A stretch of DNA of 64,000 nt from Selenomonas sputigena ATCC 35185 (lineage in GTDB: Bacteria > Bacillota > Negativicutes > Selenomonadales > Selenomonadaceae). The stretch is taken from positions 62,001-126,000 of the forward strand of contig NC_015437.1 of assembly GCF_000208405.1 (NCBI RefSeq), written 5' to 3'. A program made the translations under genes and the position numbers. Shown here one piece after another: positions 3,993 to 43,703 of this stretch (position 1 is the first letter of the stretch; each line of letters opens with the position of its first letter). The notes below the pieces were generated by a model, which had not been told where the DNA came from, made no database searches, and saw only the letters and a program-made list of their open reading frames with translations.

Positions 3993-4207
3993 CCCGAACA
4001 GATTGAATGCTACAACGAGTATTTTATATCGAACAGGTCAATAGTCAAATCTATATTCATAGTGACACTCAGTCAATGAACTATCTTAGGAAAATCTTAT
4101 ATATGTGTAAAATTTAATAATACTGACAGTCGGTGTTATGGCGATGCACATTGTACAATCGTGTGACTGGAGTAAAGCTGGCGTTAATTTGTGGGGGAGG
4201 TAACTTG
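3993..4207 (+). other. 215-nt spacer between SLATT and RT genes; possible ncRNA
   Basis: The spacer is long for a two-gene system and has no convincing ORF. Defence reverse transcriptases often act on a non-coding RNA encoded beside the RT. The segment contains short self-complementary patches, but no fold is decisive by eye. It ends in a GGGGGAGG ribosome binding site at ~4193-4201 for the RT. Confidence 0.2.
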
Positions 4208-6115
4208 ATGTTTGATATCAGCTATACCGATTGGAAAAGTGTATGTGAGATGTGCTTTAATTTAAAACAGAATACATGTAAAGCTTATTTGCAGTGGTTT
4301 CCCTTTGGTGAGCTTCCTTATCAAGATAAAAAATATATATGTAGTGAAAAGTTTTATAGGAAATATATTCAAAATCCAGCAGTATTTTTGTATTCGAAAA
4401 CTATGTATCAAACAGAAAATTTCTTGCAGAAAACAGATGGAAGTTTTAGGGAGTCTTTTTTAGTTAGCCCTTTGCTATATTTACTTTTACAAGGAATAGG
4501 AAAGGTGATTCATGATCAATATAGCTCACAACGTTCTTCAGAAATTTCTGTTTATTATGCAGGGAGTTATGAGGATAAGAATATGTGTGCTAGTTACAAA
4601 CCGTCTTATGATAGATTTTTTAAAATATTGAATATTTATGCTAAAGAATATAAATATTTCATTAAAACAGATATTGCGAATTTCTTTTCTAATATAAAAA
4701 TAAATAAGCTAATCTCCCATGTTGACGCAATATGCAATCGTGAGAAAATAGCATTTTCTCAAATGCAACTGACTCTTTTTAAGGAAATTCTTAATTATTG
4801 CGGAAATGGACAGTTTCCGCTTATTGAAAATAGTGTAGCCTCGTCTTTTTTATCGACAATTGTTTATCTTGATGATATTGATGCTGCACTTTATAAATAT
4901 ATTTCGACTAAAGTGAAGTGCATCTGTAGCTTTCGTATGGTTCGATATGTAGATGATATGTATATCTTATTTTCATCAGAAAGTGCTTTCGAAGAGTTAC
5001 ATGAAACGTATAATATAATTAAAAATGAATACTCTTCTATCTTAAAGGGGAAAGGTTTGGCACTCAATATGAAAAAGTGTTGTTTGAAAGAAACGACAAA
5101 ACTTAAGGGCGAGTTGAAAAAATCGCTTTATGATAGAAGCTTTCAAGAGGAGAAATGGCGTATAAAAAATACTTTTGTAAGTGAAATAGGGAGTTTTTTG
5201 GATGCATTGCTAGAGGAGTTATCGAATGATAGCCTTGATACAGAACGGTACAATGAAATAATAGATAAATATTTTAGCTTAAATGATATGGAGGTTACTC
5301 CGGATGAAATTTTCAATTCTGTAATATACGAAAGCAGAAATAATCTAATGTGGCGGAATCCATTTATTGTGGATAAAATTATGCGTTTGATTAAAAAGAA
5401 TATAGCATTTATTACTCTCGATCCAAAACGCTTAACATCAATGATTCTAAAGACAAGGGAAGAGAAAGTAATAAAGGCATTTTTGGCACAGCTATTTAAG
5501 AAGGATAAAAATGATACTTGGAATGCGTATGATACAACTATTACAATCTCTTATCTAGTACAGCGTCGGTTTCGGCATGGCGATTTATTGCATGTGCTCA
5601 ATCGCCGACACCCACATCTTTTTCAGTATTATGAGAACTATTGCAGAAAGAGCTTTATTGCCGATTTGCGAAAGGGAGAGAATTGGAGGCTTATAACAGC
5701 ACTGGTTCAAGATCAAATTGCATATTATTTATATTTTATGTATTTATGTGAATATAAAAAAGGAAATTTTATGACATCATTCGCTTACTATAAAAGTTAT
5801 TTTGATCGAGTGACAGCAGACCTAGCGTTTCTTCGCAATCCAAAAGGTGAGAATAAACCTAAATATCGCAAGTTTTATAAGAAAAAGCGACTATGTGAGT
5901 TCTATGAAGAGTTTGATGATAGTGCATATAATATCATTGATAAGGCTCAGGCTTTAAGATATGCCAATCCCTTGACACATTCTTCAAGTGAATTATTGAG
6001 CGATGAAAACACTTCAGAAAGACTAAAACAAAGCATAAGAGAATTATCGACACTTCTAGATAGATATATTGCCCAATATGATACAAGAGTAAATTCTAGC
6101 AAATTATTTTGCTAA
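4208..6115 (+). CDS. Reverse transcriptase, UG/Abi-like, putative phage defence
   Basis: A 635-residue RT. Motif A is FIKTDIANFF (catalytic Asp155). The motif B region is FPLIENSVASSFLS, which lacks the PQG of intron and retroviral RTs, as in the UG/Abi group. Motif C is YVDD (residues 247-250). The RT core ends near residue ~290 and is followed by ~345 mostly helical residues with no maturase or endonuclease domain, again like Abi-type RTs. ATG 4208 is preferred over ATG 4133 because GGGGGAGG sits 6 bases upstream and the extra 25 residues look unlike coding sequence. Very low GC. Expected to make cDNA, templated or not, when phage infects and to trigger the SLATT protein. I cannot assign the exact UG group. 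Confidence 0.85.
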   Translation: MFDISYTDWKSVCEMCFNLKQNTCKAYLQWFPFGELPYQDKKYICSEKFYRKYIQNPAVFLYSKTMYQTENFLQKTDGSFRESFLVSPLLYLLLQGIGKVIHDQYSSQRSSEISVYYAGSYEDKNMCASYKPSYDRFFKILNIYAKEYKYFIKTDIANFFSNIKINKLISHVDAICNREKIAFSQMQLTLFKEILNYCGNGQFPLIENSVASSFLSTIVYLDDIDAALYKYISTKVKCICSFRMVRYVDDMYILFSSESAFEELHETYNIIKNEYSSILKGKGLALNMKKCCLKETTKLKGELKKSLYDRSFQEEKWRIKNTFVSEIGSFLDALLEELSNDSLDTERYNEIIDKYFSLNDMEVTPDEIFNSVIYESRNNLMWRNPFIVDKIMRLIKKNIAFITLDPKRLTSMILKTREEKVIKAFLAQLFKKDKNDTWNAYDTTITISYLVQRRFRHGDLLHVLNRRHPHLFQYYENYCRKSFIADLRKGENWRLITALVQDQIAYYLYFMYLCEYKKGNFMTSFAYYKSYFDRVTADLAFLRNPKGENKPKYRKFYKKKRLCEFYEEFDDSAYNIIDKAQALRYANPLTHSSSELLSDENTSERLKQSIRELSTLLDRYIAQYDTRVNSSKLFC

Positions 6116-7530: not shown

Positions 7531-7694
7531 AAGTCCTTCATATTTCCGCCAAGTGTATGATCTCGATACTGCTCCGGCATGGCAGAGCATTTTTGCAGTA
7601 ACTGTAATGTCTTGATGAGTTTGGAGATGTCTTTGCCTCGTTTTTTCTCGCGGCGGACATCTCTTTTCATACGATTCGTATAGACGATCTCGTA
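7529..7694 (-). pseudogene. YafQ toxin gene fragment
   Basis: Minus-strand remnant matching 11423-11590 of the intact yafQ-like toxin almost base for base (MKRDVRR, KKRGKDISKLIKT, LGGN-KDFRE remain). The start codon is lost at the junction with a repeat element at 7695, and the C-terminal catalytic part is lost at the junction with the phosphoesterase fragment at ~7529. The antitoxin gene is absent altogether. Confidence 0.8.
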
Positions 7695-7798
7695 CTATAC
7701 GCAAAAATGTCCACTTTGTGGACAAAAGTGCGCCGCCCTTACAGAAGCCTAGCCAATCGGTCTGCGCCTGCGGCTTGACTTCTTGGGGCTTCATAGTA
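7695..7798 (+). repeat. Two-hairpin dispersed repeat, copy R1
   Basis: Contains the perfect hairpin GTCCACTTTGTGGAC and then a second imperfect hairpin bounded by GAAGCC/GGCTTC, with CCAA/TTGG inside (read on the minus strand). Same family as copies near 11903, 15831, 18401, 18508 and 43591. It lies between the YafQ fragment and the promoter region of the RloA gene. Confidence 0.85.
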
Positions 7799-11902: not shown

Positions 11903-12010
11903 TAAACTATACGCAAAAACGTCCACTTTGTGGACAAAATTGCATCGCCCTTACAGAAGCCTAGCCAATCGGTCTGCGCCTGCGGCTTGACCTCTTGGGG
12001 CTTCATCGTA
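11903..12010 (+). repeat. Two-hairpin dispersed repeat, copy R2
   Basis: GTCCACTTTGTGGAC hairpin followed by the longer CCAA/TTGG hairpin. Nearly identical to R1 at 7695. Both lie directly upstream of a YafQ gene (intact here, broken there), which shows that the repeat was part of the duplicated locus. Confidence 0.85.
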
Positions 12011-12121
12011 ATGTTTGCGAAGGTTCTTTATGTCAATCATACGCGTCTCCTGCGGAAATCCATGTAGATAGAAAAGACTCTTTTACCATTATAGCAAAAA
12101 ACGTCATCATGGAAAATCCTC

Positions 12122-15830: not shown

Positions 15831-15937
15831 AAACTACACGCACAAACGTCCACTTTGTGGACATTGTGCGCCGCCCTTACATGAAAGAGCCAATCAGTCT
15901 GCGCCTACGGCTTGACTTCTTGGACTTTCATGGTAAA
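15831..15937 (+). repeat. Two-hairpin dispersed repeat, copy R3
   Basis: Same element as R1/R2. Outer stem of the large hairpin is ATGAAAG/CTTTCAT. It sits between the tRNA gene and the M48 protease gene. A 12-base motif GAAACGCTGATA just upstream (15773-15784) also occurs at 28898. Confidence 0.85.
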
Positions 15938-18400: not shown

Positions 18401-18655
18401 TTACTATGAAAGTCCAAGAAGTCAAGCCCGAAGGGCGCAGACTGATTGGGTAACTTTCATTAAGGGCGGCGCACAATGTCCACAAAGTGGACGTTTGTGC
18501 GTGTAGTTTACTATGAAGCCCCAAGAGGTCAAGCCGAAGGTGCAGACCGATTGGCTAGGCTTCTGTAAGGGCGGCGCACAATGTCCATAAAGTGGACGTT
18601 TGTGCGTGTAGTTTACTATGAAGCCGCAAGAACTGGACATTTGTATATGCAGTCT
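18401..18655 (-). repeat. Tandem two-hairpin repeats, copies R4, R5 and partial R6
   Basis: Units begin at 18401, 18508 and 18613 with TTACTATGAA. The first two are 107 and 105 bases and complete, and the third stops after ~40 bases. R4 and R5 differ in the outer stem (GAAAGT/ACTTTC versus GAAGCC/GGCTTC) and in an inner stem (AGTC/GACT versus GGTC/GACC), changing both strands together. Confidence 0.88.
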
Positions 18656-26681: not shown

Positions 26682-26697
26682 GGGCTATCCCCCTGCT

Positions 26698-26804
26698 GAG
26701 CCGTCCAAGAAGCAAGCCCGTGGGCGTAGCTGATTGGCAAACGGCTCGTATGCGAAAACGTCCCAAGAGCGTGAGCCGAAGGCGAGACGCGATTGGCTGA
26801 CGTT
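26698..26804 (-). repeat. Two diverged CCAAGA/GATTGG hairpins in the toxin leader
   Basis: Hairpin 26698-26747 has outer stem GAGCCGT/ACGGCTC. Hairpin 26757-26804 has AACGTC/GACGTT and inner GCGT/ACGC. Both keep CCAAGA on the left and GATTGG on the right, as in the large hairpin of the dispersed repeat, while the stems differ in both strands together. Confidence 0.7.
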
Positions 26805-26876
26805 GACCGCCATTCAGGGGCTAAGAATCGACCGCCTACCGATTAGAAGCAACACCGTCTATAGTATAGCACATTC

Positions 26877-28999: not shown

Positions 29000-31003
29000 A
29001 TGCGCTTCATGAAAAAGCAGCGCCGCGCGAGGAAAGAGCGCGGCGAGAGCAATCCCTTCCTGCTGCGCCTGCAGGAGAACGTGCGCCGCGCCCTCTTGGG
29101 CGGCGTCGGCATCGTGGCGGCGGGCGCAGCCCTCGTTGGCACAAGCAGCCCTGCCAGCGCCTTGCCGCAGGGCGGTGAAGTCGCGGCGGGCGCTGCCGAC
29201 ATCGCTAAGAGCCAGGCGGAGATGGCAATTCATCAGGCGACTGAGAACGCCGTCATCAACTGGCAGAGCTTCAACATCGCGGCAAACGAGCGCGTCAATA
29301 TCTTCCAGCCGAATGCTCAGGCTGCACTTTTGAACCGCGTGCTCGGCGGCAGTCCTTCGGAAATCTTCGGCACGCTTACGGCGAACGGGCGCGTCTTCCT
29401 CGTCAACCCGGCGGGCGTCCTTTTTGCGCCCGGCGCACAAGTCGATGCGGGCGCGATCACGGCTGCGGCGATGAACATTACGAACGCCGACTTCATGGCG
29501 GGCAAGTATGCCTTCGTCGGCGCAGCTGAGAGCGGCAAGGTCATCAACCGCGGCACGCTTCGTGCGGCGGATGCGGGCGCAGTCGCGCTTCTCGGCAAGG
29601 ATGTCGTCAATGAAGGCGTCATCGTCGCCAAGAAGGGCGCGGCGGTTCTCGCGGCGGCCGAGGACGTCACGCTCGACTTCACGGGCGACGGCAAGGTCGC
29701 GGTCGTGCCGTCGAAAGCGGCGATGAAAGAGAGCGTCACGAACAAGGGCATCGTCGAAGCGGACGGCGGACTCGTCTTCATGACAGCGGCGACGGGCGAC
29801 GCGCTCGTTTCCTCTGCTGTCAATCAGGAGGGCGTCGTGCGTGCCGCGAGCCTTGACGGCAAGGCGGGGGCAATCCGCATGACGGCGAACGACGTGCGCC
29901 TTGCCGCAGGCAGCGTGACGGACGTGAGCGGCGCGAAAGCCGGCACGGTTGAGATCGGCGGCGGCTGGCAGGGCACGGGCGACCTCGCGCACGCTGAGAA
30001 TGTCACGGTTGAGCGCGGCGCGGCGGTGCGTGCCGATGCGACGGCAGCGGATGCCGCGGGCGGCACGGTCGCCGTCTGGTCGGACGGCAGGACGAAGTTC
30101 GCGGGCGAGATCACGGCACGCGGTGCAGGCACGGGCGCGGGCGGCGCGGTCGAGACCTCGGGCAAGAAGGTGCAGATCACGGGACGCGTCGATGCTTCGT
30201 CAGCGGCGGGCAAGGCGGGCGAGTGGCTGATCGATCCCGGCGATATTGAGGTCAAGACGCGAGGGACGGGGGACCCCGAAGCTGGCTCTCAGGCGGACGT
30301 GCAGACCGTCACCAATTCGCTGAACGGCGGTACATCTGTAACCATCCAGACGGCGAACCTCACGGGAAATGACGATCACTCCATCACCGTGACGGACGCC
30401 ATCAACAAGACGGCGGGCGGCGACGCGACCCTCTCCTTGAAGGCGACGGGAAGCGTCAATATCAACGCTGATATCAGCTCGACGGCGGGCAAGCTCAATG
30501 TGGACATTACATCCGATACGAACCACCGTGCGGGCGGTCGTGTCAGCGTTGCAAGCGGAAAGAATATCAAGACGCTCGGCGGCAATGTCAAGATCGGCGG
30601 CGGTCTCATGGACAGCGGCGTTGGATTTGCCAATTCGCAGAGCGCGGGCGAAGCGGGCATCATGCTCAACGGCGTCACGATTGACACGACGGACGGCACC
30701 ACGGCGAGCGGCAATGTCGAACTCGCGGGCAGCACGACGGCGAACGCGGCGGGCGTATCGCTCGCGGGCACGACGATCACGGCGGGTGCGGGCAAGGTCA
30801 CGCTCGTCGGCAAATCCACGGGCGGCGGCAAGGGTATCGCCCTCGGCGGAAACATCACGACGCGCTCGGTCGAACTGCGCACGGAATTCCCTCGACCTCT
30901 CGGGCACGATCACGGGCGATGGCGACCCCGCAGGCACGGCGAAGGTCTGGACGCTTTCGGACGGGAAGACCATCAACTTTGGCACAGGCACGGGCGGACT
31001 TGA
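29000..31003 (+). CDS. TpsA filamentous haemagglutinin, N-terminal part (before frameshift)
   Basis: Signal peptide of the long TpsA type (a basic stretch, then LLGGVGIVAAGAALVGTSSP to ALPQGG, near residue 55) and the TPS haemagglutination-activity domain (residues ~60-200: VINWQSFNIAANERVNIFQP, NRVLGGSPSEIFGTL, VFLVNPAGVLFAPGAQV), which TpsB recognises. Beta-helix repeats follow. ATG 29000 has AAAAAGGAGA upstream. The original frame is correct to 30883. There an extra G (GG at 30883-30884) shifts translation to a non-homologous tail ending at 31003, while the beta-helix continues in the +1 frame from 30885. As written, only a truncated ~667-residue protein is made. Confidence 0.88.
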   Translation: MRFMKKQRRARKERGESNPFLLRLQENVRRALLGGVGIVAAGAALVGTSSPASALPQGGEVAAGAADIAKSQAEMAIHQATENAVINWQSFNIAANERVNIFQPNAQAALLNRVLGGSPSEIFGTLTANGRVFLVNPAGVLFAPGAQVDAGAITAAAMNITNADFMAGKYAFVGAAESGKVINRGTLRAADAGAVALLGKDVVNEGVIVAKKGAAVLAAAEDVTLDFTGDGKVAVVPSKAAMKESVTNKGIVEADGGLVFMTAATGDALVSSAVNQEGVVRAASLDGKAGAIRMTANDVRLAAGSVTDVSGAKAGTVEIGGGWQGTGDLAHAENVTVERGAAVRADATAADAAGGTVAVWSDGRTKFAGEITARGAGTGAGGAVETSGKKVQITGRVDASSAAGKAGEWLIDPGDIEVKTRGTGDPEAGSQADVQTVTNSLNGGTSVTIQTANLTGNDDHSITVTDAINKTAGGDATLSLKATGSVNINADISSTAGKLNVDITSDTNHRAGGRVSVASGKNIKTLGGNVKIGGGLMDSGVGFANSQSAGEAGIMLNGVTIDTTDGTTASGNVELAGSTTANAAGVSLAGTTITAGAGKVTLVGKSTGGGKGIALGGNITTRSVELRTEFPRPLGHDHGRWRPRRHGEGLDAFGREDHQLWHRHGRT

Positions 31004-34000
31004 TCTCGCAGGCGATACGTTCACGAGCACGGGAAAGATTCAGAACTTCAAGAAGAATACGGTCGGCGACGCCGCGAAAAAGGCGAATATCATCGCAAAC
31101 GGCGTGACGGCGGACGAAGATCTGGAAATGTATACGGGTGCAGGCACGCTGACGGTCAGCGGCGCGGTGAATATCGCTTCGACGCACGCACTGACGCTCG
31201 GCTCGAAGAATGCCATGACGGGCGCGGGCGTCATCACGGCAGACGCACTCAAGCTCGATGCGGCGGATGCAACTGTGAATCTCACGGGCGCGAACGCTGT
31301 CAAGAAGCTCGACGGCAAGGCGAAGGGCTTGACCTTTAAGAACAGCGGCAATCTGACCGTTGGCGGTGAAACGGGGTTGGTGACAGCAGCGGGCGGCGCG
31401 AGTCTCGACGTGACGGGCGATCTCACGGTCGGCGCACACGGCATGACGAACGCGGCGGGCGCGATGAAGCTCAAGGCGAGCGGCACGCTCAAGCTCGATG
31501 CGAATGCCGAGGTCAAGTCGACGGGTGCGGCGGCGACATCGCTCGAAGCAAATACTGTTGAATTTGCTTCGGCGAGCAAGGTATCGACAGCAGGCGGCAC
31601 GATTGATGTCAAGACGGATGCGCTGACGCTCCCCGCAGGAGCGCAGGGCACTCTTTCGAGTGCAAACGGAAAGGTCACGGTTGAGACGAAAACGTCGGGC
31701 AAGACGATGTCCGTCGGTTCTTCGAGTGCCGATGTTCACATGAATGACCTCGATTTCATCAACTCCGGCACGGGCGAAGTCCATCTGGGCAATGCGTCTA
31801 CGGGCAACGTCGAGATCAGCACAGCCGATGTCAAAGCACCGCTGACGGTCGAGTCGGGCGCAACGCTCAAGTTCTCGGGAACGCTCTCGAATACGGCGGG
31901 CAAGAACACGACGTTCAAGGCGAACGCCGTGGACTTTGCTGCGGGCGCAAACCTCGCGGCGGGCGCGGGCACGATGACAATGGTGACGGATGCTGTCACG
32001 AACTGGAGCAATGTCACGTTTGCCGACAGCAATGCGAAGGGCACGTTTGCCCTTCAGCCCAAGACGGTGGGCAATTTCACCGTCGGCGGATCGAGCGCAC
32101 TCGTCTCGGATGCAGGCCTCGGCAAGCTCAAGGCGGGCAATTTCTACAACGTCGCCATCGGCACGAAGGAGAATGTCGGCACGGCGACCATCGCGGGCAT
32201 CGCGAGCGGCAATCTGCCCAAGTATACGAGCATCCTAACGAAGGGCAAGATCAACGTTACGGGCGCGGTCGTCGGCACATCTGCCGATACGCTCGCGCTC
32301 CATGCCGATGCGCCGGGCGCGACGCTCGGCGATGGACTGTCGCAGAGTGCGCCGATCACGGTCGGCAATCTGCTTCTCCTCGGCAAAGGCTCGATGGATC
32401 TCAGCACGCAGGCGAACAAGATTGAAAACATCGCCGCCGATATGGCGGACGGCGATCTCAAGCTCAAGAACCAGACGAACATGAAGGTCGCTGTCGTTGA
32501 GAATCGTACCGTCACGCCGAAGGTGAATGTCGACGGACTCAAGACGAAGTCGACGGACATCAAGATGGATGCCGGCAAGAAGCTCACGGTCGCGGGCAAT
32601 CTGAGATCCACGGACGACACGAAGATCGAAGCCGACGATCTCGACCTCGGGAATAACAAGGTCAACGTCGGCAAGAAGCTCACGCTCGAAAAGGCGACGA
32701 AGTCGCAGGCGATCAACATCGGCACGGGTGCGGGCGATTGGAACATCAACAACAGTGCCTACGGCGAGATCAAGATCGGCGGCGCGACGCAGACGGGCAA
32801 CATCAATATCAAGGGTGCGACCTTCAAGAAGCCGTCGGATATTGAGACTACGGGCGACGTCACACTGACGGGCGCGACGAAGGCGGGCGCGGACGGCAAG
32901 TCCGACATGAAGATCAAGGCGCATGCGGCGACTCTGCCGACGGCGTCCGATACGCTCGCTGTCAAGAATCTCGACCTCGACCTCTCGGGCGGCATCGATC
33001 TCGGTCTTGGCAAGATCAACGGACAGAAGGACGGCAAAGTCACGGCGAAGGGCGCATCGGCGAGTCAGGACATCTATATCAGTGACAATGCCGCAGATGC
33101 TCCTTCCACGGAGTTCCGCATTGCCTACCGTACGATCAACAATACGCTCGATGGCTTCGGCGGCTTCGACGTCGCGGGTGAGAAGCATGTCTACTTCTAC
33201 GGCGGTTCGGTCAAGAAGTCCATCAATGCGGCGGGCAAGCTCGGCGTCGAGGTGCGCGACAATCTAACCATCGAGGGCAAGGGTACGAAGCTCAAGATCG
33301 GTGCAGATCCGACGCAGGCGGGGCATGATCCCGCCTCGGTCATCACGGGCGGCTTTACCGTTAAGCAGGGCAAGACTGTCCATGTGAAAGGCGTCGACGG
33401 GACGAGCAAGGAAAACGGCGCAGAGATCAATATCCAAACGGCGGGCAACATCCATCTCGAGCAGGGAGCTACACTGAAGGTCGAGGGCAACTATGCACAG
33501 GCGACGCTCAATGCACGAAACGGCGACGTCGTGCTGAACGAGGATGCCAAGGTGCAGGTCGCTCCCGGCTCCACACCCGTCTGGGTCGATGTCACGGGCA
33601 AAAAGCTGCAGCTCGACGCACGCGCTCAGCTCGACTCGGGCACCGATACCGTCGGTGCTCTGCGCGTGCATACGGATGAGATCGTCACGCCGACAGCGGA
33701 CGACAATACGACGAACATCGTCGGCAAGAGCGGTCTCGTCATCACGCGCAAGACGGCGGGCGATTTGACGCTCAACAACGCTTCTACGGGCGCAGGGCTT
33801 CATGTCACGAGCGACCAGCTCAACGGCAAGCTCTTTGGCAAAGATTTCAGCGAATTGGTTCTCGGCGACAATCGCAGCCAGACGGTCACGATCGACGGAC
33901 TTGAAGCGAACAACCGCGTCGTCGTCAAGACAGCGGAGACGGGCAAGACGGTCATCGGCGCGGGCGGACTCAAGGTCGGCACGGACGGCTCCGGCAAGGA

Positions 34001-37000
34001 CTACAAAGTGACGCTGACCACGGGTGAGATCGAGAACTCGGGCGGCGCGGGCATCATGAACATCGGCGAGGGCAGCACGCTGAACCTCTATACGAACAAT
34101 ATCACGAATCTCGCAGCGCACGGGAGCAGTCCGTCCGTCACGGGCACGGGCACACTCGGCATCGGAACGTACAACGGCTCGAAGACCATCGGGCTTGGCG
34201 ACGGTGCGACGGGCGACCTGCAGTTGACGAACAATAAGTTCACACAGGTATTCGGCTCGAACTTCTCGCATTACGCCATCGGCAACGGTACGCAGGGTAC
34301 GATCAATGTGAAAAATTCTTCCCTCGGGAAGGACGTGACACTGCAGGCGGATAACATCAACTTCGCAGGGGATATGACGCTTGCGGCGGGCAAGACGCTC
34401 GTTGTCAACGCCAAGACGGCGGCGAACCAGACGGCGGGCAAGATTACGGCGGCGAATCTCGCCGCCGTCGGCGGCAACATCGCGCTCGAACAGGCGAACG
34501 AAATCGGCACGCTCGCCGCCGACGCCCTCTCCGTCAAGGTCAAGTCGAACGCCTTGACGATCGGCGAGATCACGACGCCTGCGGGCGCTCCCGTTCCCTC
34601 GCGCACGATCACGGGCGTCAAGGCGGGCGAGTCCGGCGGCACGGCGGGCGACGTCGTGCTTTCGGCGGACGCCATGACCTTCACCGAAGGCGTCGAGGGC
34701 AAGGGCAATCTCACCGTGCAGCAGGCAAATGCGGCGACGAACCTCAATGTCGGCGCGACGGGTACAGGGCTGAATCTGCCTGCGAGTCTCTTCGGCGGCG
34801 CGAAGATCAAGGACGGCTTCAAGCATGTCTATCTCGGCCGCGAAGATGCGACGGGCGCGACAAAGGTCGGCGGCAATCTGAACTTCGTCGATCCGACAAC
34901 GATCCGCTCAGGGAAAACCGCAGGCTCGATGACGGTCGACGGTTCGGCGAACATTCAGACGAACGGCAACGACTTCGCACTCGAATCGAAGGATTTGACG
35001 ACGGCGGCGGGAAGCTCCATCGATACGGGCACGGGCGCGCTCACGCTCAAGACCGATGCGATGAACTTGAACGGCAAGATGAAGGGCAAAAAGGCGCTCA
35101 ATATCCTGCCGATCTCGCACGATCGCGACATCAAGCTCGGCGGCGAAGTGAACGATCCCGCGAAGCTCTCGCTGCTCGACAAGTATTTCAATGGAAACAA
35201 CCGTCAGTTCTGGGAGTATGAGATCATCAACATCGGCGACCGTGGCGGCGGCGGACGTCTCTATCAGAGCGGCACGATCGACATGCCGTTCACCGTCAAC
35301 ATCCAGCAGGCGATCACGAGCGGCCAAGGCGGCGTCAACCTCTCCGGCTCGATCAAGACGCACGGCAGGGACTATACCGTCGCCAGCCGCGAGGTCAATC
35401 TCGACGATGCGCATATCAATGCCGACGGCGCCGACCGCGATCATGACGGTAACGTCGCCATCCAGGCGGACAAGCTCAACACGGCGAACGGCAGCACGAT
35501 CACGGGTCACGGCGACGTCTCCTTCGACACCTATACGCCGGACAAGACGCTCAACTTCGGCACGCCCGGCGCGGGCGGCTCTGCCTCCGATCCCACACTT
35601 CCGTCCGACATCTTCAGCGGCACGGGACTCCTGCGTAAGAATTCCGACGGCAAGGGCTTCCGCAAAATCCGCATCGGCGGAACGAATGCAGGCGATATCA
35701 AGGTCGGTAATGTCGACCTGCCCGAGGGGCTTGCCGATGCCGTATCCATCAAGACGAACAAAGATGTCACCTCGACGGGTGTCTTGAAATCCGTTCCGAC
35801 GCTCGAAGTAGATGCACATAACGTAAATCTCACGGGGCCGAACGAGATCAAGAATCTCGGTAATATCACGTCCGCGACGGGCGTTTCCGTCGAGACGAAG
35901 GGCGGAACGAACGTCACGGGGGTTATCAAGGGGAATAACGCCGCCATCAATATCAAGAACAAGGACGGCGGCAACGTCACGATTGCGCCCGGCGGGCAGA
36001 TCGTCGGCACGGGCACGTCCGATGTCCTCATCGAGGCGAAGGGCGGCGCCTTCAAGAACAAGGGCGGCGCGAACGCCATCCAGACCGCGCCCGGTCAGCG
36101 CTATGTCGTGCATACGGAGGACTCCGTCGAGAACGAGATCGACGGTCTCGTCTTCGAGTTCCGCCGCTACGGCACGGACTACACGCAGCGCGGATCGGTC
36201 ACGATTCCGCCCGGCAAGAACGCCATGTTCTACAAGTACCAGCCCGAACTCAAGCTCTACTCGACGCGTGCCTACGGCGATGACAACGCGGCCTTCTTCA
36301 ACTCGACGGCGGGCTTCCATATCGAAGACGACGGCAACCTCAAGCGTCGTGCGCTCGACAAGACGGAGGTCGACTATATCCGCAACCATGTGCAGGATTC
36401 GGGCACGCATAACTTCGGCACGACGAAGCTGACAAATGTCAATGCCGACGTCAATACGGCGGACGGCACAGTGACGAATGCGATGACCGATGTCACCAGA
36501 CGTGCGGGCACGCATACCTATGGCTCGAATTCGAGCATTGCCAATGAGAAGATCACCTATCAGGGACATAACGACCTCAACTACAAGATTACGGTCGACT
36601 ACCGCATCGTGCCGCGCGTCGTCACGGTCACGGGCAAGACATCGACCGTAAACTACGATGGCAATCCGCACAGCTATACGGGCAACGCGGGCGTTACATT
36701 CTCGAACTTCGCGAACAGCCAGACGGAAAATACAACGGGACTTCTCTCGGGGGCTGTTTCCTATACCCCGATTGCGGACGCGGCGAAGACATCGGGCTAC
36801 GCGCAGGGCGCTGTCCATGCGGGCGAGTACAGTGTTGACTTGAAAAACAGCACGCTCTCCGCGACGAACTACAAGTTCAAGTACGTTCCGGGCAAGCTCA
36901 CCATTAAGCCCATCGACATTCACTTCACCGCGCCGAGCGGCGAGCGCATTTACGGCACGGCAAACGACAGCGTGACGATTCCCACACCGTCGTATACGGG

Positions 37001-40000
37001 ATCGCTTGTCTCCGGCGACAGCTTCGCCAAGTATACCGTCACAGCGGTTGATGGCGGCGGTAACGCTGTCACCGAGCGCACGGGTGTCGGATCGTACACG
37101 ATGTCGCTCCAAGGCGTTGCTCTTACCACGGGCAGCCGCAGTCTTGCGACGGATTATAACATCACATCCGGCACGGGCACGCTGACCATCAAGAAGCGTG
37201 CGCTGACCATCACAGCGGGCGACAAGAGCCGCGTCTACGGCGATGCGAACACGACGGCGGGTTATGTCAATCACACGGCGAAGGTCAACGTCGCTGCGGC
37301 TACCGCAACGACGGGACTCGTCAACGGCGACGCCATCGACGATGTGACGGAGACGATTGACCCGACAGCGACCGCCACGACGAATGCGGGCACAGCAGGC
37401 CTTTGGACAAAGGCAAGCGCCGCGCACTTCTCGTCAGGCACGGCGGCGAACTATGACATCACCTACGTCAACGGACACTTCAACATCACGAAGCGGCCGC
37501 TGACGCTCGTCGCGGGCGACAAGAGCCGCATCTACGGCACGGCGAACAGCACCGCAAACTATGTGAACGGTACGAATCTCTTCCGCGTCAAGTCGGGCAC
37601 GAACCTCGTCAACGGCGATGCGGTTTCGACCGTCACGGAGACGATTGATGCGCGTGCGACCGTCACGACGGACGCAGGTACGGCAGGACTCAAGACGAAG
37701 ATTGCAAATGCCGTCTTCGGCACGGGAAATGCCAATAACTACGACATCTCCTACGAGGACGGCAGCTTTGCCATCACGCCGCGTGACTTGACGCTCCGTG
37801 CGGGCAGCAAGACGCGCATCTACGGCACGGAGAACTCGACTGCCGTCTACACGGGCGGCACATCGAAGTTCCGCGCCGACGGGGCGACGGCGACGACGGG
37901 ACTCGTGAACGGCGATACTATCGCTGACGTTGATGAATCGACGGATGCCCTCGTTACGACGAACGCCGGTACAGCGGGACTCAAGACGCAGATTGCCAAT
38001 GCACGCTTCGGCGCGGGCAGGGCATCGAATTACAACATTCACTATGTGGACGGCGGCTTCGATATCACGAAGCGCGACCTCTACATCACGGCGGGCGATA
38101 AGAGCCGCATCTACGGCGACGCCAACGAAACGGCGCACTATGTGAACGGCACGAACCGTCTCAACGTGCGTGCGGCAGACGCGACGACGGGGCTTGCGAA
38201 CGGTGATCGGATTTCATCCATTACGGAGACGATTGATCCGTCGGCAACCGTCACGACGAACGCCGGCACGGCAGGTCTTTGGACAAAGGTAAGCGCCGCG
38301 CAGTTCTCGCATGGTACGGCGGCGAACTACAACATCCACTACGCAGACGGCGCGTTCACCATTACGAAGCGTGCATTGACTCTCCTTGCGGGCGATAAGA
38401 GCCGCATCTACGGCACGGCGAACACGACGGCGGGCTATGTCAATGGCACGAATCTCTTCCGCGTCAAGGCGGGCACGAACCTCGTCAACGGCGATACGGT
38501 TTCGACCGTCGCGGAGACGATTGATTCGCGTGCGACCGTCACGACGGATGCAGGAACGGCAGGACTCAAGACGAAGATTGCAAATGCCGTCTTCGGCACG
38601 GGCAATGCCAATAACTACGACATCTCCTACGAGGACGGCAGCTTCGCCGTCACGCCGCGCGACTTGACGCTTCGTGCGGGAAGCAAGACGCGCATCTACG
38701 GCACGGAGAACTCGACCGCCGTCTACACGGGCGGCACATCGAAGTTCCGCGCCGATGCCTCGACCGCCACGACGGGGCTCGTAAACGGCGACGCGGTCGC
38801 TGACGTCGATGAATCGACGGACGCCCTCGTCACGACGAACGCCGGCACGGCGGGACTTAAGACGCAGATTGCCAATGCACGCCTCATGGGCAATCGTAAG
38901 GCATCGAATTACAACATCCACTATGTCGACGGCGGCTTCGACATCACGAAGCGCGACCTCTATATCAAGGGCGGCGATAAGAGCCGCGCTTACGGCGCAG
39001 CGAACAGTCTGGCGCAGTATGTGAACGGCACGAGCCGTATCAACGTGCGCCATGCCGACGCGACGACGGGACTGGTGAACGGCGATCGGATTTCCTCCAT
39101 CACGGAGACGATCGATCCGCTGGCGACCATCACGACGGATGCGGGCACGCCGCACCTCTGGACGCGCGTCTCTGACGTGCAGTTCGGCTCGGGGCTTGCC
39201 TCGAACTACACGATTCACTATGCGGACGGCAGCTTTGCCATCGTGCCGCGCGAGGTTCTCGTCACGGCGGGCAACGCTTCGCGCGACTATGGTGCACCGA
39301 ACCCCGTCGTCACCGAGTACACGGTTGAGCGCGGCGACTATACGTCAGAGCGCGGCCTCTTGGCGGGCGATGATCTCACGGGCGTCGCGACCTACTACGA
39401 TGCTGCCATTACGCCGCAGACGGCGGGCGGGACGTATGCAGGCGTCATTCACGTCGATCCCGCCTCCGTCAATGCAGGCTATCGAGGTGCGACGGCGCTT
39501 TCCAACTATCGCTTCAGCTATGCGCCCGGTGCATTGAAGATCAATCTGCGCGGCTTTGACATGAGCACGCCCGAGGGCAGGGTCGTGACGACGGGCAGCA
39601 TCACAGCGTCCCAGATCATAGCGAACCTCAGCCATGGCCATACGGGCGGTGTCAGCGGCATGACGGGCATCGGCAGCGGCGGCGCGAGCATGCGCGGCGG
39701 TGCAGGAAGCATTGGTGGCACGAGCGCAGGCAGCGCCAACGCTGGAACGAGCAGCGGCAGCAGCGCCGGCACAACCGGCACAGCCGCAGGTGCGCCGTCT
39801 GCCGAGCAGCTGCACGATACATCGTTTGCCGACGGCGTTGCCGTCGACATGCCGAAAGATCTGGCGGCGACGAACTGGCAGAGCCGCGTCGTCGTCACGG
39901 CGGGCGGCGCTTCTGAAGCGCACGACTATGTCGAAGGCGCGGACGGCTCCTTCGGATTCGATCTCGCCAAGACGCGCGGCAACTACGGCATCCACGACGA

Positions 40001-40412
40001 GATTCCGGGTGGCACGTCGGAAGCCATCCCCGTCCTCTTCACGGACGGCGGCTCGCGCGACCTTGACGGCATCTACTCCGTCAACTACGGCCCAGGCAAG
40101 CTCGCCATCAAGCCCGCTTCGAAGAAGGTCGAGATCCCCGACCCCAAGGAGATCCGTCATGCTGCAGAGAAGGCTTTGAGCTTCCTCTACCAGACGAAGA
40201 ACGGAGCCTTCGAAGTCACCTTCGGCAACGGCATCGTCACGCTCTATCCGAAAGACGCGCCGGCGCTCAACATCGTCGTCAGCAAGGACAAGAAGGCCGA
40301 GCGCGCCGTCCTCGCCTCCGGTCTCCTGACCGCCATCGAGGACCTCGGCGTGACTCCCGTGGAGATCCGCGCCGTCTACATCTTCAAGGAACTCGGCGAA
40401 AGCGCAGAATAA
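30885..40412 (+). CDS. TpsA filamentous haemagglutinin, C-terminal part with MBG domains (after frameshift)
   Basis: 3,175 codons continuing the gene begun at 29000; together ~3,800 residues. It opens with NSLDLSGTITGDGD, which completes the VELRT of the first part. Beta-helix repeats rich in Gly/Ala/Thr/Lys extend to ~36.0 kb. YDG/MBG-type domains follow from ~36.6 to 39.5 kb (units with GDKSRIYG and TAGLKTKIANA), then a Gly/Ser-rich linker (~39.6-39.8 kb) and a C-terminal globular region. There is no toxin domain or sorting signal, so a surface adhesin is likely. This part has no start codon or ribosome binding site of its own near 30885. Confidence 0.85.
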   Translation, partial: NSLDLSGTITGDGDPAGTAKVWTLSDGKTINFGTGTGGLDLAGDTFTSTGKIQNFKKNTVGDAAKKANIIANGVTADEDLEMYTGAGTLTVSGAVNIASTHALTLGSKNAMTGAGVITADALKLDAADATVNLTGANAVKKLDGKAKGLTFKNSGNLTVGGETGLVTAAGGASLDVTGDLTVGAHGMTNAAGAMKLKASGTLKLDANAEVKSTGAAATSLEANTVEFASASKVSTAGGTIDVKTDALTLPAGAQGTLSSANGKVTVETKTSGKTMSVGSSSADVHMNDLDFINSGTGEVHLGNASTGNVEISTADVKAPLTVESGATLKFSGTLSNTAGKNTTFKANAVDFAAGANLAAGAGTMTMVTDAVTNWSNVTFADSNAKGTFALQPKTVGNFTVGGSSALVSDAGLGKLKAGNFYNVAIGTKENVGTATIAGIASGNLPKYTSILTKGKINVTGAVVGTSADTLALHADAPGATLGDGLSQSAPITVGNLLLLGKGSMDLSTQANKIENIAADMADGDLKLKNQTNMKVAVVENRTVTPKVNVDGLKTKSTDIKMDAGKKLTVAGNLRSTDDTKIEADDLDLGNNKVNVGKKLTLEKATKSQAINIGTGAGDWNINNSAYGEIKIGGATQTGNINIKGATFKKPSDIETTGDVTLTGATKAGADGKSDMKIKAHAATLPTASDTLAVKNLDLDLSGGIDLGLGKINGQKDGKVTAKGASASQDIYISDNAADAPSTEFRIAYRTINNTLDGFGGFDVAGEKHVYFYGGSVKKSINAAGKLGVEVRDNLTIEGKGTKLKIGADPTQAGHDPASVITGGFTVKQGKTVHVKGVDGTSKENGAEINIQTAGNIHLEQGATLKVEGNYAQATLNARNGDVVLNEDAKVQVAPGSTPVWVDVTGKKLQLDARAQLDSGTDTVGALRVHTDEIVTPTADDNTTNIVGKSGLVITRKTAGDLTLNNASTGAGLHVTSDQLNGKLFGKDFSELVLGDNRSQTVTIDGLEANNRVVVKTAETGKTVIGAGGLKVGTDGSGKDYKVTLTTGEIENSGGAGIMNIGEGSTLNLYTNNITNLAAHGSSPSVTGTGTLGIGTYNGSKTIGLGDGATGDLQLTNNKFTQVFGSNFSHYAIGNGTQGTINVKNSSLGKDVTLQADNINFAGDMTLAAGKTLVVNAKTAANQTAGKITAANLAAVGGNIALEQANEIGTLAADALSVKVKSNALTIGEITTPAGAPVPSRTITGVKAGESGGTAGDVVLSADAMTFTEGVEGKGNLTVQQANAATNLNVGATGTGLNLPASLFGGAKIKDGFKHVYLGREDATGATKVGGNLNFVDPTTIRSGKTAGSMTVDGSANIQTNGNDFALESKDLTTAAGSSIDTGTGALTLKTDAMNLNGKMKGKKALNILPISHDRDIKLGGEVNDPAKLSLLDKYFNGNNRQFWEYEIINIGDRGGGGRLYQSGTIDMPFTVNIQQAITSGQGGVNLSGSIKTHGRDYTVASREVNLDDAHINADGADRDHDGNVAIQADKLNTANGSTITGHGDVSFDTYTPDKTLNFGTPGAGGSASDPTLPSDIFSGTGLLRKNSDGKGFRKIRIGGTNAGDIKVGNVDLPEGLADAVSIKTNKDVTSTGVLKSVPTLEVDAHNVNLTGPNEIKNLGNITSATGVSVETKGGTNVTGVIKGNNAAINIKNKDGGNVTIAPGGQIVGTGTSDVLIEAKGGAFKNKGGANAIQTAPGQRYVVHTEDSVENEIDGLVFEFRRYGTDYTQRGSVTIPPGKNAMFYKYQPELKLYSTRAYGDDNAAFFNSTAGFHIEDDGNLKRRALDKTEVDYIRNHVQDSGTHNFGTTKLTNVNADVNTADGTVTNAMTDVTRRAGTHTYGSNSSIANEKITYQGHNDLNYKITVDYRIVPRVVTVTGKTSTVNYDGNPHSYTGNAGVTFSNFANSQTENTTGLLSGAVSYTPIADAAKTSGYAQGAVHAGEYSVDLKNSTLSATNYKFKYVPGKLTIKPIDIHFTAPSGERIYGTANDSVTIPTPSYTGSLVSGDSFAKYTVTAVDGGGNAVTERTGVGSYTMSLQGVALTTGSRSLATDYNITSGTGTLTIKKRALTITAGDKSRVYGDANTTAGYVNHTAKVNVAAATATTGLVNGDAIDDVTETIDPTATATTNAGTAGLWTKASAAHFSSGTAANYDITYVNGHFNITKRPLTLVAGDKSRIYGTANSTANYVNGTNLFRVKSGTNLVNGDAVSTVTETIDARATVTTDAGTAGLKTKIANAVFGTGNANNYDISYEDGSFAITPRDLTLRAGSKTRIYGTENSTAVYTGGTSKFRADGATATTGLVNGDTIADVDESTDALVTTNAGTAGLKTQIANARFGAGRASNYNIHYVDGGFDITKRDLYITAGDKSRIYGDANETAHYVNGTNRLNVRAADATTGLANGDRISSITETIDPSATVTTNAGTAGLWTKVSAAQFSHGTAANYNIHYADGAFTITKRALTLLAGDKSRIYGTANTTAGYVNGTNLFRVKAGTNLVNGDTVSTVAETIDSRATVTTDAGTAGLKTKIANAVFGTGNANNYDISYEDGSFAVTPRDLTLRAGSKTRIYGTENSTAVYTGGTSKFRADASTATTGLVNGDAVADVDESTDALVTTNAGTAGLKTQIANARLMGNRKASNYNIHYVDGGFDITKRDLYIKGGDKSRAYGAANSLAQYVNGTSRINVRHADATTGLVNGDRISSITETIDPLATITTDAGTPHLWTRVSDVQFGSGLASNYTIHYADGSFAIVPREVLVTAGNASRDYGAPNPVVTEYTVERGDYTSERGLLAGDDLTGVATYYDAAITPQTAGGTYAGVIHVDPASVNAGYRGATALSNYRFSYAPGALKINLRGFDMSTPEGRVVTTGSITASQIIANLSHGHTGGVSGMTGIGSGGASMRGGAGSIGGTSAGSANAGTSSGSSAGTTGTAAGAPSAEQLHDTSFADGVAVDMPKDLAATNWQSRVVVTAGGASEAHDYVEGADGSFGFDLAKTRGNYGIHDEIPGGTSEAIPVLFTDGGSRDLDGIYSVNYGPGKLAIKPASKKVEIPDPKEIRHAAEKALSFLYQTKNGAFEVTFGNGIVTLYPKDAPALNIVVSKDKKAERAVLASGLLTAIEDLGVTPVEIRAVYIFKELGESAE
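37190..39260 (+). repeat. Higher-order MBG-domain repeat array in tpsA
   Basis: Each MBG unit is ~97 codons. Three unit types (starting LTLVAGDKSRIYG, LTLRAGSKTRIYG, LYITAGDKSRIYG) follow in fixed order and the trio is repeated with a period of 876 bases: 37528 corresponds to 38404. DNA identity between the two trios is high, with whole phrases such as AVFGTGNANNYDISYEDGSF unchanged. Confidence 0.85.
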
Positions 40413-43548: not shown

Positions 43549-43703
43549 GTTCTTCTACGCCCTTTGGACTTGACTTCTTGGGCTTTCATAGTAAACTATA
43601 CGCACAAACGTCCACTTTGTGGACATTGTGCGTCGCCCTTACATGAAAGCGGCCAATCAGTCTACGTCCGTTGGGCTTGACTTCTTGGGCTTTCATAGTA
43701 CAA
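43549..43703 (+). repeat. Two-hairpin dispersed repeat, partial R7 and full R8
   Basis: 43549-43592 is the right half only (CTTGACTTCTTGGGCTTTCA at its end). 43591-43703 is a full copy with GTCCACTTTGTGGAC and outer stem GCTTTCAT/ATGAAAGC. A 20-base scrap of the same element is at 43197-43218. It directly precedes the ATPase gene. Confidence 0.82.

What the first reader, a model, noticed from the sequence alone, without database searches (positions are those of the whole stretch)
18401..18655. Dispersed two-hairpin repeat family with compensatory base changes
About six copies (7695, 11903, 15831, 18401, 18508, 43591) plus fragments share a ~105-bp unit: a short perfect hairpin (GTCCAC-TTT-GTGGAC) and a long hairpin. 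In the long hairpin CCAAGA and GATTGG are constant, whereas the outer stem reads GAAAGT/ACTTTC, GAAGCC/GGCTTC, GAGCCGT/ACGGCTC or AACGTC/GACGTT and an inner stem reads AGTC/GACT, GGTC/GACC or GCGT/ACGC. Both sides change together, so the folded form, as RNA or single-stranded DNA, seems to be selected. No mobilising enzyme is in the window.
Basis: seen in the sequence. Interest (0 to 1): 0.65.

Follow-up and report, generated by a model that had tools for sequence, protein, structure and literature searches.

The report
Miniature RNA-guided-transposon repeats with hairpins
The repeats are short mobile DNA pieces, found across a whole bacterial family, whose two ends match those of a transposon moved by a guide RNA (IS110 type); between the ends they keep two hairpins whose shape, but not sequence, is conserved, so they look like stripped-down passengers of an RNA-guided transposon.

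Summary
The ~105-bp unit occurs in about 70 full or partial copies in this 2.57-Mb genome and at similar density in a congener. A covariance model of the long hairpin finds the family in 61 of 151 genomes sampled from the order (17 of 30 genera). Twenty-one distinct outer 5' arms pair 5.71 of 6 bases with their own 3' arm, against 4.06 when arms are swapped (0 of 2,000). Individual pairs did not pass my tree-based null.

Five filled/empty site pairs show mobility: AC(Y)ATG...GTAG(Y)TT inserts after a T-run, before RY, with no duplication beyond the ambiguous TT. RAYT/IS200 and IS91 transposases and reverse transcriptases are absent from most copy-rich genomes. The ends match an IS110-family element of Selenomonas bovis and a relative (20 of 22 terminal bases). 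Its inferred bridge RNA has an invariant donor guide reading the repeat end, and a target guide that tracks each copy's insertion site. This genome holds only a relic of that IS110.

Best reading: non-autonomous, IS110-ended elements, mobilised in trans, with tandem arrays from insertion into their own ends. A second architecture with two long hairpins occurs in rRNA operon spacers. The function of the hairpins is unresolved.

The parts
18403..18509 (+). Class I element, complete unit 1 of the tandem array (outer stem GAAAGT/ACTTTC), after the T-run of a terminator-like hairpin (CTCCCCGTGTTT)
   Evidence: boundaries by the rule from empty sites
18510..18614 (+). Class I element, complete unit 2 (outer stem GAAGCC/GGCTTC)
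18515..18563 (+). Hairpin A of unit 2: GAAGCC-CCAA-GA-GGTC-aa-GCC-gaa-GGT-gca-GACC-GA-TTGG-cta-GGCTTC
18574..18607 (+). Hairpin B of unit 2: GCGCACAATGTCCAT-AAA-GTGGACGTTTGTGCGT
18615..18640 (+). Truncated third unit (ACTATGAAGCCGCAAGAACTGGAC...)
15831..15934 (-). Class I element, single copy; empty site in congener G001
7694..7798 (-). Class I element, single copy
11904..12011 (-). Class I element, single copy
43595..43701 (-). Class I element, complete unit of a two-unit array
43554..43594 (-). Truncated second unit of that array
26695..26812 (+). Class II element: two A-type hairpins (AGCCGT/ACGGCT and AACGTC/GACGTT) joined by CGTATGCGAA, ends GCTGA...GACCGC

Best explanation
The ~105-bp repeats (class I) are non-autonomous mobile elements with the ends of one IS110 subfamily. 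In IS110 orientation the left end is AA(A/G)CTACACGC and the right end is TTTCATAGT|AA. Inferred cycle: an IS110 recombinase, with a bridge RNA supplied in trans, excises the element as a circle by recombining its AA cores and reinserts it at an AA core flanked by RY on one side and an A-run on the other (T-run then RY on the repeat strand). This leaves no duplication beyond the shared dinucleotide. Because a bridge RNA whose target loop reads CATAGT|AA also recognises the repeat's own end, head-to-tail arrays form. Shown here: mobility, ends to within 2 nt, absence of a longer duplication, end identity with the IS110, and donor- and target-guide matches in its left end. Inferred: trans-mobilisation, the circle, and the cause of the arrays. 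Hairpin A, just inside one end, and hairpin B, just inside the other, are kept by shape. My best guess, held weakly (about 0.3), is that they are subterminal structures needed by the element, as folded DNA or RNA, rather than host regulatory RNA.
For: Five filled/empty pairs fit one rule with no duplication (one differs by 1 nt in a T-run). In 63 left ends the flank is T-rich, and of 40 right ends the flank is R in 34 and then Y in 39. IS110 copies in G067 (S. bovis DSM 23594, 100% identical record) and G028 have ends TTTCATAATAA and AAAC(T/C)ACA(T/C)GC, against repeat ends TTTCATAGTAA and AAACTACACGC. Ten copies in Lachnospiraceae bacterium 28-4 define the right end independently as TTTCATAGTAA. 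The family is NF033542, IS110 RNA-guided transposase. In the left ends where the guide motif is readable, 22 of 22 hold the invariant GTATAGTAAAA, and in most a second guide at fixed distance matches the local insertion flank: CATAGT/CATAGT, TTATCT/TTATCT, AAACC/AAACC, CTATA/CTATA, TTCT/TTCT. The S. bovis IS110 sits at the end of a repeat array. G000 carries an IS110 relic. IS621 uses a bridge RNA that can be supplied in trans and a short donor around the core (PMC11208160). Random orientation to genes (14/14/10/9) and no clear strand bias against replication fit insertion into double-stranded DNA.
Against: Copy-rich genomes now lack a matching intact IS110: G000 has only a relic, the G001 IS110 is distant (24% identity) and shows no such ends, G069 has a short fragment, and G113, G027, G138 and G140 have none. 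Draft assemblies lose IS copies, but G000 and G001 are single-contig, so recent mobilisation there is not explained. Target sites share few bases beyond T-run/core/RY, where a bridge RNA should read about 7 bases on the left side. Hairpin A is not found in the IS110, and class II elements share hairpin A without the IS110 ends, so the hairpins are not explained by IS110 descent. End similarity alone could be convergence on a recombinase site. Arrays with a (C/G)TAC left junction are mostly truncated on the right, which this model does not explain.
Confidence: 0.7

Rival explanations
1. REP-like elements mobilised as single-stranded DNA by a Y1 (RAYT or IS200/IS605) transposase that reads the hairpins.
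For: Two hairpins near the ends, insertion 3' of a T-rich site without duplication, GTAG near one end; G000 has a six-copy IS200-like element.
Against: No Y1 domain in G001, G069, G067, G027, G138, G113, G028 or G096. No RAYT above the curated cut-off in the family members searched. The IS200 ends and its TTAT target differ, and it inserts into repeats as a target. No orientation bias to replication (23 leading versus 26 lagging, from coordinates and GC skew).
Confidence: 0.07
2. Structured RNA family: the hairpins act in transcripts (processing, stability or regulation) and spread by an incidental mechanism.
For: Strong RNA fold; shape conserved across genera; class II elements lie in what read as 16S-23S and 23S-5S spacers.
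Against: No orientation preference to neighbouring genes; no Rfam match; defined mobile ends and empty sites; hairpin B is wholly replaced between genera.
Confidence: 0.15
3. Ordinary MITE of a DDE insertion sequence.
For: Small, multicopy, mostly intergenic, no coding capacity.
Against: No target duplication beyond 2 nt in five empty sites and no matching terminal inverted repeats beyond about 4-5 bp; the ends match an IS110 instead. DDE families were not searched.
Confidence: 0.05

Closest known systems
IS110 family (IS621-type bridge-RNA-guided elements)
   Same: Ends, dinucleotide core, no longer target duplication, target requirement on both sides of the core; the inferred bridge RNA donor guide reads the repeat end.
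   Different: Repeats are ~105 bp, have no recombinase and no recognisable bridge RNA, and carry two conserved hairpins absent from the IS110.
REP/BIME elements with RAYT transposases
   Same: Short intergenic hairpin repeats with compensated stems, found as singles and arrays; targets of other insertion sequences (PMC1525189).
   Different: No RAYT; two-hairpin unit of ~105 bp with defined insertion ends; arrays are head to tail.
Pneumococcal BOX elements (boxA-boxB-boxC)
   Same: Modular repeats with strong predicted folds and variable modules (PMC3049150).
   Different: No sequence relation tested; here a constant hairpin A joins exchangeable B or C hairpins and the ends match IS110.
Rickettsia palindromic elements (RPE)
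   Same: One related element lies in frame inside an ORF (L015).
   Different: Mostly intergenic; different host group; RPE sequences were not compared here.

Membership tests
IS110 family, non-autonomous member (class I repeats) | Both ends match the donor (RE and LE) of an IS110 element | tested here: met
   20 of 22 terminal bases against the S. bovis IS110; right end 11 of 11 against the Lachnospiraceae 28-4 IS110
IS110 family, non-autonomous member (class I repeats) | Insertion at a shared dinucleotide core without longer duplication | tested here: met
   Five empty/filled pairs, ambiguity of 2 nt (TT) only; one site has a 1-nt T-run difference
IS110 family, non-autonomous member (class I repeats) | Target sequence matches a bridge RNA target guide | tested here: inconclusive
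   T-run and RY are conserved, but no full guide match is known for G000 insertions; S. bovis IS110 guide CATAGT reads repeat ends
IS110 family, non-autonomous member (class I repeats) | Active matching recombinase in the same genome | tested here: not met
   G000 has only a relic, G001 a distant IS110; an intact matching copy is present in S. bovis (G067) and G028
IS110 family, autonomous element | Encodes a DEDD recombinase and a bridge RNA | tested here: not met
   ~105-bp unit, too short to encode a recombinase; no GTATAGTAAA-type guide seen inside it
REP/RAYT | Y1 RAYT transposase in genomes rich in the repeat | tested here: not met
MITE | Terminal inverted repeats and target duplication | tested here: not met
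Known RNA family (Rfam 15) | Covariance-model match at gathering score | tested here: not met
   Only a tRNA in the window

The most novel reading that the evidence does not exclude
A family-wide class of miniature elements that lack both recombinase and bridge RNA and parasitise IS110 bridge-RNA systems through their donor ends, with selected, covarying hairpins as their own functional body. One architecture is transposed this way; a sister architecture sharing the hairpin spreads by another route, including into rRNA operons.
Probability: 0.5. Interest if true: 0.75.

Novelty: new variant of a known kind. Interest (0 to 1): 0.62.

Why it matters
IS110 systems are being developed as programmable recombinases. 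Natural elements that carry only donor ends would show that bridge RNAs act in trans on foreign minimal donors in nature, would supply hundreds of natural donor/target pairs, and would explain a large repeat family of the Selenomonadaceae that has no Rfam entry. The covarying hairpin shared by two mobile architectures poses a testable question: which factor reads it.

Tried and rejected
RAYT/IS200, reverse transcriptase or group II-type mobilisation (none in G001, G069, G067 or G027) and IS91/Y2 (one of 26 genomes) were tested and dropped. A search for a gene recurring beside the repeats found none. Insertion strictly at terminators: 9 of 45 left flanks against 6.5% of background TTT sites, a weak bias only. 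A kink-turn reading of the CCAAGA/GATTGG motif was considered and dropped because the bulge is not next to the G-A pairs. Class II ends were sought in the IS110 loci without a convincing match. The tree-based covariation test gave no pair at E<=0.05. No plasmid record holds the repeat. Searches of the open paper library returned nothing for Selenomonas intergenic hairpin repeats, for Selenomonadaceae with REP, or for IS110 with bridge RNA and MITE; three papers hold 'IS110 family', 'non-autonomous' and 'miniature' but I did not read them. Subscription papers are not covered.

Full report
WHAT IS THERE. The unit starts TAC(T/C)ATGA and ends GTAG(T/C)TT. It holds hairpin A (outer stem; CCAA/TTGG; a tandem G-A mismatch; inner stem; AA/GCA loop; GCC/GGC tip) and hairpin B (GCGCACAATGTCCAC-AAA-GTGGACGTTTGTGCG). 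The locus 18401-18655 is a head-to-tail array of two full units with different outer stems plus a truncated third.

HOW MANY AND WHERE. The window lies in a single-contig 2,568,361-bp genome with 45 listed matches. The fetched loci gave 72 full or partial units, with a few counted twice where loci overlap. The congener G001 has a similar number. By blastn, 10 of 60 relatives have matches. There is no match in plasmid records and no Rfam family.

FOLD. One unit folds with z = -6.6 as RNA and -4.7 as DNA. On the MAFFT alignment 89% of cells pair, against 81% in shuffles and at most 50% when partners are slid by one to three columns; 83 cells changed on both sides against 28.5. RNAalifold on the whole unit recovers both hairpins, with double changes in hairpin B too (GTCCAC/GTGGAC to GTCCGC/GCGGAC in G020). 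A test that ignores the outer arms when finding elements gave 21 distinct 5' arms pairing 5.71 of 6 bases with their own partner against 4.06 +/- 0.18 when swapped; many of those loci had first been brought in by the covariance model, so the set is not wholly independent of structure. My R-scape-like tree null gave no pair at E<=0.05; one loop class is misaligned there, so the phylogenetically corrected test remains open. Across genera hairpin B is replaced by unrelated sequences that still form hairpins, and in a few G000 copies by a longer hairpin C.

MOBILITY. Five copies have empty sites in G001. All fit AC(Y)ATG...GTAG(Y)TT inserted after TTT, with ambiguity only over TT and no longer duplication; one site differs by one T. 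Over 63 left ends the flank is T-rich, and of 40 right ends the flank begins R in 34 and then Y in 39. Copies are almost all intergenic by crude gene calls, with no orientation preference to genes. From the coordinates and the GC-skew switch near 1.25 Mb, 23 array sites lie on the leading and 26 on the lagging strand.

WHICH ENZYME. Y1 transposases, reverse transcriptases and Y2 transposases are missing from most copy-rich genomes. IS110 is patchy too, but one IS110 lies beside a repeat array in G067. Comparing it with a relative in G028 gave the element limits: in IS orientation LE TAAAC(T/C)ACA(T/C)GCC and RE GGTTTCATAATAAA. The repeat, read the same way, has AAACTACACGCAC and GGTTTCATAGTAAA. 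Ten copies of a 58%-identical IS110 in Lachnospiraceae bacterium 28-4 independently fix the right end as TTTCATAGTAA. The protein is NF033542, IS110 RNA-guided transposase. G067 is Selenomonas bovis DSM 23594 or nearly identical to it.

BRIDGE RNA. In the 22 homologue loci where the motif was read, the left end holds an invariant GTATAGTAAAA, which matches the donor right end and the repeat end, and upstream a variable guide whose last bases equal the flank of that copy in most loci (exceptions include L258 and L271). Ten of the 22 are copies in one Lachnospiraceae genome. This is the donor- and target-guide arrangement described for IS621 (PMC11208160), inferred here from sequence only. The S. 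bovis guide reads CATAGT, the repeat's own end, which would explain why it sits there and why repeats form arrays.

LIMITS. G000 has only a relic of this IS110 and the G001 IS110 is distant, so current mobilisation there is not shown. G000 insertion sites share few bases. The IS110 has no hairpin A. Arrays with a (C/G)TAC left junction are mostly truncated on the right; unexplained.

SECOND ARCHITECTURE. Class II elements have two long hairpins joined by CGTATGCGAA and end GACCGC. There is one in the window (26695-26812) and 17 matches to the joint in G000, including three in tandem at 120-bp spacing. From sequence context I read three as lying in rRNA operon spacers, after the 16S 3' end and before 5S. 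Related elements occur in other genera, once in frame inside an ORF. Their ends did not match the IS110s examined.

VERDICT. A real, family-wide, structure-conserved mobile repeat. Class I is best read as a non-autonomous IS110-ended element; the role of the hairpins is the open question.

Noticed in passing
window 4133-6115 (+): 660-aa ORF with a reverse transcriptase domain and an AbiA C-terminal HEPN domain: an AbiA-type abortive-infection protein.
   Followed up: partly
window 30498-40412 (+): 3304-aa ORF with eight MBG_2 domains and ~291-bp internal repeats, probably a surface adhesin.
   Followed up: partly
L084-L089 (G000): Six copies of an IS200-like element (tnpA, 168-aa frame) inserting after TTAT; two of them landed in the end of a class I repeat.
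   Followed up: partly
L238, L241, L242 (G000): Class II elements in what read as rRNA operon spacers, after the 16S 3' end and just before 5S.
   Followed up: partly
L015 1489-1600 (G003): A hairpin-A element lies in frame inside an ORF that reads like a restriction-type helicase.
   Followed up: no
L047 and L058 (G000): Copies where hairpin A is joined to a longer hairpin C (GAGGACATATGTACAGC...GCTGAACATATGTCCTG) in place of hairpin B.
   Followed up: no
L051 right flank (G000): A ~70-bp sequence beside this copy (GATAGATACAGCGCATCTGCGCAAATCTGGGCGAC...) has many matches in G001 and also follows several class II copies in G000.
   Followed up: no
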